DNA of 42,437 bases from Actinomycetota bacterium (GTDB taxonomy: Bacteria > Actinomycetota > Actinomycetes > S36-B12 > UBA5976). The position numbers were made by a program, and so were the translations under genes. Each line of letters begins with the position of its first letter. Position 1 is the first letter of the stretch. Below, piece by piece: positions 37,433 through 40,818 of the stretch. The stretch lies in assembly GCA_009885745.1 (NCBI GenBank), contig VFKC01000099.1:1-42437 (forward strand), written 5' to 3'. The notes beneath the pieces were generated by a model. It was not told where the DNA came from, ran no database searches, and saw only the letters and a list, made by a program, of their open reading frames with translations.

Positions 37433-37726
37433 AATTTATTTCTCCGCAGGAAGGTAGGTTGAGGCGATTGGCCATCGGACATCCACGACATTTACTTCGT
37501 GGACATTCGACGAGATTTGCACATCATCTCACTGATAACTTCCCAAACATACGCGCTTAATGGGCATCTGGTCAAACCCGCTTTACTAAAATAGCAACTA
37601 AAATACAGGTCAAAGATGGGCGCTTCAACTAGCGACCTTCGGAACCTGTGGAAAAGACTTGTCAGATTGGTGCAATTGGGCGTAGTCTGCTGATTTCGAC
37701 CTGTGGAAAACTGTGAAAGGCCCAAA

Positions 37727-39172
37727 ATGGACAATGTTGAATTAATTGAAGTGTGGACAAAGACACTTGAATCCCTCACCTCAAATGCAATCACACCTCA
37801 ACAACGTGCGTTCGTGGCATTAACCAGGCCGCTGGGTCTTATCGGTGATACGGCTCTTATCGCAGCACCAAATGAATTTACAAAATCAGTTTTAGAAAGT
37901 CGATTAAGTCCGATTCTCTGTGATGCACTTTCACGAATACTTGGCCGTGAAGTGCGACTTGCCGTAACAGTTGATGAAACTATCGCGCCGGATCTTGATG
38001 AAGATGCAACAGACGAGTTGGCTGACTCAACCTATGCAGACATCGAAGTTGTCGGATCTCCATCTGACCCCAAACCTGCCTTACCGCCGCAGGCAAGTCG
38101 CGGTCCAGCGCCAGCGCCCAAGAACGCTCAAGAGGGTAGCCGACTAAATCCCAAATATACTTTCGACACATTTGTTCCAGGTTCATCAAATAGATTCGCG
38201 CACGCAGCAGCGCGCGCTGTCGCCGAGCAACCGGCTAAGGCATACAACCCATTATTTATTTACGGGGAATCTGGTCTTGGTAAAACTCACCTCTTACACG
38301 CGATTGGGCACTATGCCCGAACGTTGTATGCAGGCTCGAAAGTTAGATATGTAAGTAGCGAAGAATTCACCAACGAATTCATTAACTCAATTCGTGATGA
38401 CAAGGCTAAAGAATTTCAACGACGATACCGTGATATTGATGTTCTACTAGTTGATGATATTCAATTCTTGTCTCAAAAAGTACAAACACAAGAAGAGTTT
38501 TTTCATACCTTTAATACTCTCCACAACGCAAATAAACAAATAGTCGTAACTTCAGATTTGCCACCGAAACAATTACAAGGTTTTGAAGACCGAATGAGTT
38601 CACGTTTTGAATGGGGTTTGATTACAGATGTTCAGCCACCCGATTTAGAAACACGTATCGCTATCTTAAGAAAAAAGAGTGCGCAAGAAAGATTAAGTGC
38701 TCCTGCCGATGTGTTGGAATATATTGCCTCAAAAATGTCAACTAACATTCGTGAACTTGAAGGCGCACTAATTCGAGTAACAGCCTTCGCTAGTTTAAAT
38801 CGCGCACCTGTTGACCTGGATCTTGCTGAGATTGTGCTTAAAGATTTGGTTACGGATGCTGCTGGTCCTGAAATAACTTCAGCTTTAATAATGAGCCAAA
38901 CTGCAAATTATTTCGGAATTAGTATGGACGATTTAACCGGAGCAAGTAGATCTCGGGTTTTAGTGACTGCGCGACAAATCGCGATGTACTTATGTCGGGA
39001 GCTCACTGAGTTGTCTCTGCCAAAAATTGGCCAGCAATTCGGTGGTCGTGACCACACAACAGTTATGCATGCAGATCGTAAAATTAGAACTCTCATAGCG
39101 GAACGTAGAAGTTTGTACAACCAAGTGAGTGACTTAACTTCACGAATTAAGGTTCAAGCAAGACAACTTTAA
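37727..39172 (+). CDS. dnaA: Chromosomal replication initiator DnaA
   Basis: [31 protein letters not shown] and [17 protein letters not shown] 37727 gives [10 protein letters not shown]. Confidence 0.97.
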
Positions 39173-39245
39173 GTTATGTCATCTCATTAACTTAAGTCAC
39201 TTATATACACATTGTGCACAACTTGTGCATAAATAGGTATTTGGT

Positions 39246-39284
39246 TTTGTTCTCACTTTGTTCATAATTTGTTTTCATTTTGTT
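39246..39284 (+). repeat. Four TTTGTT elements with an 11-bp period
   Basis: TTTGTT begins at 39246, 39257, 39268 and 39279. Confidence 0.85.
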
Positions 39285-39626
39285 GGGATAAACTGCGGAT
39301 AACTCAACAGTTACCCACAAAAAACTGTGGATAGCTGTGGATAACTAATCTGAAATTACTAACTTCAATATTCATGCATTAGTTTTACACAGGTTATTAA
39401 ATAAAATTATTCCTGAGCCAAGTGAATATTCAGGGGTTATCCACAGTTTCCACAATGCCTAATACGACTAATAAAGATATACATATGAAATCTGCTTAAC
39501 CCACTGATTTGAGATTTTCGTGGATAACTACAAATAAAAGTAATAAATTGCCAAATAGTAAAATTGTGTAGTGCTGTGATGTGTTCGTCACAAGTACATG
39601 GCACGATAGGGGCTCGGAGAACATTA

Positions 39627-39665
39627 TCAAGTTACTTAAGAATAATTATTTCTTAAGTAACTTGA
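39627..39665. repeat. Perfect 16-bp inverted repeat with 7-nt loop upstream of dnaN
   Basis: TCAAGTTACTTAAGAA (39627-39642) / TTCTTAAGTAACTTGA (39650-39665). Confidence 0.95.
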
Positions 39666-39690
39666 ATCAATTTTAGAAGGTGTGAAGTCT

Positions 39691-40818
39691 GTGAAGTTTA
39701 GAGTCAATCGTGACGTTATGGCCGATGCTGTTAATTGGGCAACACGTAGCCTTCCAACAAAGTCAACGAATCCACTTTTAGCTGGATTACATTTAGTTGC
39801 TGAGCGCACCGGTTTAGTTTTATCTGGTAACGATGCCGATGTCAGTGCTCGAGTAAATCTAAATGCTGATGTCGCCGAACCAGGAACAACACTCATACCT
39901 GGGCGACTACTTGCAGATATAACTAAGTCTCTTCCATCTGCACCAATTGAAATTTCAATAGAAGGCTCACGGGCAGTTATTACTTGCGGACGCTCATCAT
40001 TTACTTTGCCAACAATGCCTGTTGCTGACTACCCACCATTACCTACTATGCCTGAAATTAGTGGATCAATAGATGGAGCTTCATTTGCTAGTGCGGTTGC
40101 ACAAGTTGTGGTGGCTGCTTCCCGCGATGAGACGCTACCTGCTTTCACTGGTGTAAAAATAGATGTAGAAGGATCTGTAATTACTCTGGCTGCCACAGAT
40201 CGTTATCGGTTAGCAGTGAAAGAAATATCTTGGACACCAACACAAACTTCAATTTCAACAAATGCTTTAGTGCCAGCGAAATTTCTTTCTGATACAGCAA
40301 AATCTTTATCAAGTAGCGAGCTGGTATCACTGGCCTTCGCGTCTGTTTCCGAGGGACTAATCGGCATCGAAGGTGCTGGCCGCCAAACAACTAGCCGCAT
40401 GTTAGCTGCAGATTTTCCAAAATACCGAACACTGCTTCCGAGTGAATCAAGCACGATTGCTCAAGTAAGCACAGCGTCATTAATTGAAGCTGTTAAGCGT
40501 GTTTCTTTGGTGCTTGAGCGAGAGCAGCCAATCAAAATAACTTTTGGTGCCACAGAAGCAACAATTTCTGGTGGCGGCGGTAGTGGAGACATCGCAGAAG
40601 CAAAAGAATATGTTGAGTGCGCAACAGCTGGTGAAGAAATATCTATCGCATTCAATCCAAACTTTTTACTTGATGGTCTTAATGCAATAGATGCACCGGT
40701 CACTGTTGTGTCAATGACTGCTGCAGCAAAACCTGCGGTTATCACTGGTGCACCAGATATGGACGCTGATTCACAGGATGGATTCAAGTACCTTTTGATG
40801 CCAATTCGCCAGCCCTAA
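39691..40818 (+). CDS. dnaN: DNA polymerase III subunit beta (sliding clamp)
   Basis: MKFRVNRDVMADAVNWATRSLPTKSTNPLLAGLHL; start could be 39682 or 39691 (both GTG). Confidence 0.96.
   Translation: MKFRVNRDVMADAVNWATRSLPTKSTNPLLAGLHLVAERTGLVLSGNDADVSARVNLNADVAEPGTTLIPGRLLADITKSLPSAPIEISIEGSRAVITCGRSSFTLPTMPVADYPPLPTMPEISGSIDGASFASAVAQVVVAASRDETLPAFTGVKIDVEGSVITLAATDRYRLAVKEISWTPTQTSISTNALVPAKFLSDTAKSLSSSELVSLAFASVSEGLIGIEGAGRQTTSRMLAADFPKYRTLLPSESSTIAQVSTASLIEAVKRVSLVLEREQPIKITFGATEATISGGGGSGDIAEAKEYVECATAGEEISIAFNPNFLLDGLNAIDAPVTVVSMTAAAKPAVITGAPDMDADSQDGFKYLLMPIRQP

What the first reader, a model, noticed from the sequence alone, without database searches (positions are those of the whole stretch)
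39246..39284. Phased TTTGTT array with exact 11-bp period next to the DnaA boxes in oriC
Four identical TTTGTT hexamers start at 39246, 39257, 39268 and 39279 (units TTTGTTCTCAC, TTTGTTCATAA, TTTGTTTTCAT, TTTGTTGGG). The spacing is constant and close to one helical turn. The array lies immediately left of the DnaA-box-like cluster at 39294-39344. It does not match the classic DnaA box or the DnaA-trio as I know them. Helical phasing suggests cooperative binding of an origin protein, phased bending, or an element of the unwinding region.
Basis: partly seen in the sequence, partly recalled or inferred. Interest (0 to 1): 0.65.

Follow-up and report, generated by a model that had tools for sequence, protein, structure and literature searches.

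The report
Degenerate 11-bp DnaA-box array in oriC
Four near-identical short repeats spaced exactly one helical turn apart sit in the replication origin of an uncultured actinobacterium; they are real, are shared with one sister species, and look most like a row of weak binding sites for the replication initiator DnaA, a layout known from E. coli.

Summary
The four TTTGTT hexamers at 39246, 39257, 39268 and 39279 are real, and shuffles do not reproduce them (0/4000 and 0/20000). They lie in the dnaA-dnaN intergenic region, between two DnaA-box groups rather than only left of one. In 43 family genomes, TTTG x4 at 11 bp occurs twice: here and at the same place in the closest sister species. The other genus oriCs have a shorter T-rich spacer there. 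So the period is shared by the sister pair only, and the full hexamers are not conserved.

A generic scan of the whole window for four DnaA-box-like 9-mers in an 11-bp register ranks the array first (25/32; best outside oriC 21). It also outscores the two E. coli gap regions that hold the proven low-affinity arrays (21 and 19). Same-orientation box spacing in 72 other actinobacterial oriCs peaks at 11 bp. The array is not the unwinding site: a conserved box-box-DnaA-trio element lies about 150 bp away (39437-39481).

Best reading: a lineage-specific low-affinity DnaA-box array. Binding is untested, orientation unresolved, and box resemblance in the sister weak. A decayed tandem repeat in a T-rich spacer remains the main rival.

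The parts
37703..39172 (+). dnaA
   Evidence: 489-aa ORF; 83-98% identical to DnaA of genus relatives
39682..40818 (+). dnaN; the 509-bp dnaA-dnaN intergenic region 39173-39681 is the origin region
   Evidence: ORF; order dnaA-dnaN-recF, with clusters of DnaA boxes between dnaA and dnaN
39203..39211 (+). DnaA box ATATACACA (genus form CTATACACA)
   Evidence: box matrix score 8.2; conserved in the genus alignment
39213..39221 (-). DnaA box TTGTGCACA (near-palindrome; reads TTGTGCACA on + from 39212)
   Evidence: score 8.0; upstream pair conserved in genus at 11-12 bp spacing
39224..39232 (-). DnaA box TTATGCACA, 11 bp from the previous one
   Evidence: score 10.9
39246..39284 (+). the TTTGTT array: hexamers at 39246, 39257, 39268, 39279
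39247..39255 (+). unit 1 as weak DnaA box TTGTTCTCA (7/8 of TTRTNCACA)
39258..39266 (+). unit 2 TTGTTCATA (7/8); on minus TTATGAACA at 39259-39267 scores 6.0 with the genus box matrix
39269..39277 (+). unit 3 TTGTTTTCA (6/8)
39280..39288 (+). unit 4 TTGTTGGGA (5/8), overlaps the conserved box at 39283
39283..39291 (-). middle DnaA box TTATCCCAA, 43 bp before the central pair (39326), a position kept in most of the genus
39294..39302 (-). DnaA box TTATCCGCA, 11 bp from the previous one
   Evidence: score 9.7; same in the sister L002
39311..39319 (+). DnaA box TTACCCACA, 15 bp before the central pair
   Evidence: score 12.9; same position in several relatives
39326..39344 (-). central DnaA box pair CTATCCACA / TTATCCACA, 10 bp apart
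   Evidence: scores 13.2 and 15.7; pair conserved in the genus
39437..39454 (+). box pair TTATCCACA-GTTTCCACA next to the DnaA-trio
39459..39481 (+). DnaA-trio-type unwinding element CTAATACGACTAATAAAGATATA (degenerate CTA repeats; near-perfect CTACTACTACTA in most genus members)
   Evidence: aligned position conserved in the genus and across many actinobacteria

Best explanation
The array is a row of four degenerate, low-affinity DnaA boxes in a 9+2 bp register, in the gap between an upstream box group (39203-39232) and the middle/central boxes (39283-39344). DnaA held on the stronger flanking boxes would load further DnaA onto the weak sites one by one. All protomers lie on one helical face, so a DnaA oligomer fills the gap before opening occurs at the separate box-box-DnaA-trio element (39437-39481). 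Shown by sequence: the exact 11-bp register, the position between stronger boxes, the graded box similarity (7/8, 7/8, 6/8, 5/8), the same periodicity in the sister species, and 11 bp as the modal box spacing in actinobacterial oriCs. Inferred: DnaA binding, cooperativity, and any ATP dependence. Orientation is unresolved: the plus reading fits better in the window, the minus reading (ACA core plus AA flank) fits both species weakly.
For: Generic scan for four TTRTNCACA-like 9-mers at 11 bp: the array is the top hit among 84,792 positions of the window (25/32); maximum outside oriC 21. Window p<1/400; sister p about 0.015 on minus. Same-orientation box spacings in 72 other actinobacterial oriCs peak at 11 (133 pairs) and 22 (101), trough at 14-19. 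The first two units resemble the upstream two-box module, 16/22 (p 2e-4 spacer shuffle, 0.0018 linker shuffle); linker letters fit the box better than shuffled linkers (p 0.004). TTTG x4 at 11 bp occurs in 43 genomes only at this oriC and the sister's.
Against: No binding data. With a box matrix learned from this genus and family the plus-strand units score at or below zero, and only one minus-strand site (39259) is above background; the best single score in the spacer is not significant (p 0.12) and an earlier phased matrix test was marginal (p about 0.04). Most of the 25/32 comes from TTGT inside the hexamer itself. The plus-strand reading is not kept in the sister. Other genus members mostly lack a phased box array in this spacer. 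Under an ungapped alignment the array is 59% identical to the sister, close to 4-fold sites (56-72%); retention of the 11-bp units under neutral drift has probability 0.005-0.05, so constraint is suggested, not proven. Register, orientation and the 22-bp comparison were chosen after seeing the sequence.
Confidence: 0.5

Rival explanations
1. A decayed 11-bp tandem repeat in a fast-evolving T/G-rich spacer: slippage or duplication in the ancestor of the two sister species lengthened the spacer (from about 31 to about 50-58 nt). The repeat carries no function beyond keeping boxes apart.
For: The window and L002 have extra sequence exactly here relative to the other genus members; TRF sees a tandem repeat; array identity to the sister (59%) is near neutral, versus 92% for the central boxes and 89% for box-box-trio; absent in the other genus members.
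Against: Linkers are scrambled while all four TTTG stay in 11-bp register in both species (L002 p 5e-5 at 11 bp); neutral retention 0.005-0.05; the period equals the modal DnaA-box spacing of actinobacterial oriCs.
Confidence: 0.28
2. A phased T-tract spacer that makes the DNA bent or flexible (with or without an HU-type protein), letting DnaA on the upstream and central boxes meet, as IHF does in E. coli.
For: T-runs in this spacer have a roughly 10-bp period across the genus even without the window and its sister (z 5-7 at 9.5-10.5), not seen in two of three control segments. Predicted curvature here is high within several oriCs and at the 97th percentile of the window. HU binding in the spacer between two DnaA boxes is presumed for T. 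maritima oriC (PMC10316083).
Against: Curvature is not above shuffles of the same spacers (Fisher p 0.18), A-tract phasing only weakly so (0.02); in the window itself T-run power at 9.5-11 is unremarkable (p 0.64); the runs are short (3-4 T); the species are related, so z is inflated; the wedge table was entered from memory.
Confidence: 0.13
3. A T-rich single-strand DnaA-binding element (E. coli ssDUE type, motif TTGT/TTATT), i.e. part of or a second unwinding element.
For: Each hexamer contains TTGT, which with TTATT is required for DnaA binding to the T-rich DUE strand of E. coli (PMC5742627); the top strand is 59% T here.
Against: The array lies between boxes, whereas DUEs are described as flanking, never within, the box cluster (PMC4285127); TTRT motifs are few and not conserved in genus spacers; it is not the least stable segment; the conserved DnaA-trio is elsewhere.
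Confidence: 0.06
4. A binding array for another origin regulator that recognises TTTGTT-type sites.
For: Identical hexamers at a fixed helical period are typical of cooperative binders (inference).
Against: No such array in 41 other family genomes and no further copy elsewhere in this genome; MtrA-type sites look different and lie upstream.
Confidence: 0.03

Closest known systems
E. coli oriC low-affinity DnaA arrays (R5M-tau2-I1-I2 and C3-C2-I3-C1)
   Same: Four sites, one direction, exactly 2 bp apart (11-bp period), in the gap between stronger boxes, each deviating from consensus; the E. coli gap even contains the 9-mer TTGTTCTTT, close to unit 1 TTGTTCTCA
   Different: Here the units are near-identical repeats, binding is unproven, the organism is an actinobacterium, and the array is confined to two sister species
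Actinobacterial oriC box arrays at 11-bp spacing (e.g. Nonomuraea L046, Acrocarpospora L049)
   Same: Same-orientation DnaA boxes in 11-bp register around dnaA
   Different: Those units are near-consensus boxes; here they are degenerate
DnaA-trio / basal unwinding element
   Same: Present in the same oriC, next to a box pair
   Different: It is about 150 bp from the array and has a 3-bp, not 11-bp, repeat
E. coli ssDUE TTGT/TTATT motifs
   Same: TTGT inside each unit, T-rich top strand
   Different: The array lies between boxes, is not the least stable DNA, and is not conserved

Membership tests
Low-affinity DnaA-box array (E. coli type) | Several sites in one direction separated by exactly 2 bp (11-bp period) | tested here: met
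   39247/39258/39269/39280; top phased hit of the window; period 11 scores 25/32, other periods 15-19
Low-affinity DnaA-box array (E. coli type) | Lies in a gap flanked by stronger DnaA boxes | tested here: met
   Boxes 39203-39232 and 39283-39344
Low-affinity DnaA-box array (E. coli type) | Units are recognisable but degenerate boxes (deviate from consensus) | tested here: inconclusive
   7,7,6,5 of 8 against TTRTNCACA, better than the E. coli arrays; poor against the genus-trained matrix
Low-affinity DnaA-box array (E. coli type) | Specific, cooperative, ATP-preferring DnaA binding at low affinity | not testable with these tools
   Needs footprinting with purified DnaA
Low-affinity DnaA-box array (E. 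coli type) | Conservation of the array across relatives | tested here: inconclusive
   TTTG x4 at 11 bp kept in the sister species only; absent from other genus members
DnaA-trio unwinding element | 3-bp repeats (5'-TA[A/G]-3' on the bound strand) directly beside a DnaA box | tested here: not met
   The array has an 11-bp repeat; the trio is at 39459-39481
Intrinsically bent DNA (phased A-tracts) | A/T tracts phased at about 10.5 bp giving curvature above composition | tested here: inconclusive
   97th percentile in window but p 0.26 versus its own shuffles; genus Fisher p 0.18 (curvature), 0.02 (A-tract)
E. coli-type ssDUE | TTGT/TTATT motifs in the T-rich strand of an unstable DUE flanking the box cluster | tested here: not met
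   TTGT present, but it lies within the cluster and is not the least stable segment

The most novel reading that the evidence does not exclude
An E. coli-like timing array of low-affinity DnaA sites arose recently in one actinobacterial lineage by tandem multiplication of an 11-bp DnaA-box unit, with selection keeping only the half-site and the helical register while the rest drifts. It would be a young, traceable case of a replication-timing array being born.
Probability: 0.2. Interest if true: 0.55.

Novelty: new member of a known kind. Interest (0 to 1): 0.36.

Why it matters
Low-affinity DnaA arrays set initiation timing in E. coli but are hard to see in other origins because the sites are degenerate. 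A blind 11-bp phased scan scores this array above the E. coli gaps, and 11 bp is the modal box spacing in actinobacterial oriCs. That makes such arrays predictable from sequence and gives a concrete, lineage-specific case to test.

Tried and rejected
Unwinding-element reading: rejected because the conserved box-box-trio lies at 39437-39481 and the array is not the least stable DNA. Curvature and A-tract phasing: only weak. Genus-matrix search for strong hidden boxes in the array: one weak site only. Intraspecies variation: not obtainable (one genome per species held; metagenome scans closed). Viral-contig scan for the upstream module gave one phage contig (L127) unrelated to oriC; a scan for the trio segment gave none. 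A first attempt at delimiting the spacers failed on a bad pattern and was redone.

Full report
OBSERVATION. The four TTTGTT hexamers start at 39246, 39257, 39268 and 39279 exactly as reported. They lie in the 509-bp region between dnaA (37703-39172) and dnaN (39682-40818). In dinucleotide shuffles, no hexamer occurred four times at any constant period of 6-40: 0/4000 for the intergenic region, 0/20000 for the 62-bp spacer. The array is the only one of its kind in the window. In the whole genome and 42 other family genomes, TTTGTT x3 at 11 bp occurs only here.

ANATOMY. A box matrix learned from 33 family origins finds boxes at 39203+, 39213-, 39224-, 39283-, 39294-, 39311+, 39326-, 39336-, 39437+ and 39446+. 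The array thus lies between two box groups. Placing the genus origins on the central box pair shows a fixed framework: an upstream pair 11-12 bp apart, a middle minus-strand box at -43 in most members, a plus box at -15 in several, and the central pair. In the window the -43 box is 39283-39291 (TTATCCCAA), and the fourth hexamer overlaps it. The other three hexamers sit in the T-rich spacer between the upstream pair and the middle box. That spacer is 21-43 nt in other members, mostly 31-33 nt, but 49 nt in the window and 57 nt in the sister L002; in the alignment the extra sequence falls in the array.

CONSERVATION. The sister species (DnaA 98% identical) has TTTG x4 in perfect 11-bp register in the same spacer (TTTGTAATTCA TTTGTGCTCTA TTTGCCATTTG TTTGGATAA). 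Among 43 family genomes the pattern TTTG x4 at 11 bp occurs only at these two origins, with zero control hits; the shuffle probability for L002 alone is 5e-5 at 11 bp and 7e-4 over periods 5-20. The full hexamers are not conserved. With an ungapped alignment the array is 59% identical to the sister, against 92% for the central boxes and 89% for the box-box-trio. Four-fold sites of dnaA and dnaN are 56% and 72% identical, so the array is near the neutral level overall. Simulated neutral drift keeps four phased units with probability 0.005-0.05. Constraint on the register is suggested, not proven.

WHAT IT RESEMBLES. A scan using only the generic consensus TTRTNCACA, four sites at 11 bp, ranks the array first in the whole window (25/32); the next hits are the adjacent upstream boxes, and the best score outside oriC is 21. 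The 9-mers it picks there include TCATTCACA, TTATACGGT, TTGATCCAA and TTGTTCTTT, which I recognise from memory as R5M, I1, I3 and C3. E. coli arrays are described as four low-affinity sites in one direction, separated by exactly two base pairs, in gaps between strong boxes (PMC4451416; PMC6727663). Plus-strand units here match 7, 7, 6 and 5 of 8 consensus positions. The first two units also resemble the upstream two-box module, 16 of 22. In 72 other actinobacterial origins, same-orientation box spacing peaks at 11 with a second peak at 22 and a trough at 14-19, so an 11-bp box register is normal for the group.

LIMITS. Much of the score comes from TTGT inside the hexamer; linker-only shuffles give p 0.004. 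The genus/family matrix finds only one above-background site in the array, TTATGAACA on minus at 39259, not significant on its own (p 0.12). In L002 the plus reading fails; a minus chain anchored on CAATCCACA gives p about 0.015. Orientation therefore stays open. Registers, orientation and the 22-bp comparison were chosen after seeing the sequence.

RIVALS. (a) A decayed tandem repeat in a drifting spacer explains the lineage restriction and near-neutral identity, but not easily the kept register. (b) Phased T-tracts: T-runs in this spacer show about 10-bp periodicity across the genus even without the two array species (z 5-7), also in the next spacer at 9-9.5 bp but not in two other segments. 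Related species inflate this, predicted curvature is not above shuffles, and general A-tract periodicity of 10-11 bp is known in prokaryotes (PMC3940949 abstract). (c) A TTGT-type single-strand element: the motif fits (PMC5742627), but position, stability and conservation do not. The conserved opening site is the box-box-CTACTACTACTA element, seen at the same place throughout the genus and in many other actinobacteria.

VERDICT. Observation confirmed; interpretation partly supported. Most likely a lineage-specific, low-affinity DnaA-box array in the standard 9+2 register: a new member of a known kind, with moderate confidence because nothing here measures binding.

Noticed in passing
39177-39199 (GTCATCTCATTAACTTAAGTCAC) and the same place in most of L003-L012, L019-L022: Direct repeats of GTNAC with a 9-bp period just after the dnaA stop, conserved in much of the genus (e.g. 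GTCACACTCGTAACATCTGTCAC in L011). They resemble the MtrA motif GTCACAgcg reported at the M. tuberculosis origin, and the genome encodes an MtrA above the NCBIfam cut-off.
   Followed up: partly
39437-39481 and other actinobacterial loci: Two adjacent DnaA boxes followed by CTA repeats (DnaA-trio) are conserved in position and form from this genus to Streptomyces and Nocardiopsis; the window and its sister carry an unusually degenerate version (CTAATACGACTAATA).
   Followed up: partly
Spacer between upstream pair and middle box in genus loci L003-L022: T-runs on the top strand have a roughly 10-bp period across the genus independent of the window; cause unknown.
   Followed up: partly
L127:4636-4657 (IMG/VR contig): A phage contig carries ATTGTGCACAACTTGTGTATAA, the sister's upstream two-box module, just before a phage ORF; possibly DnaA boxes or a promoter in the phage.
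   Followed up: no
L023 (CAMBGF010000002.1): Record titled Bifidobacterium breve carries a DnaA 87% identical to the window's and matches genus member L011; it looks like a mislabelled MAG.
   Followed up: no
L046, L049 (Nonomuraea, Acrocarpospora): Near-consensus DnaA boxes in strict 11-bp same-orientation arrays lie around dnaA.
   Followed up: partly
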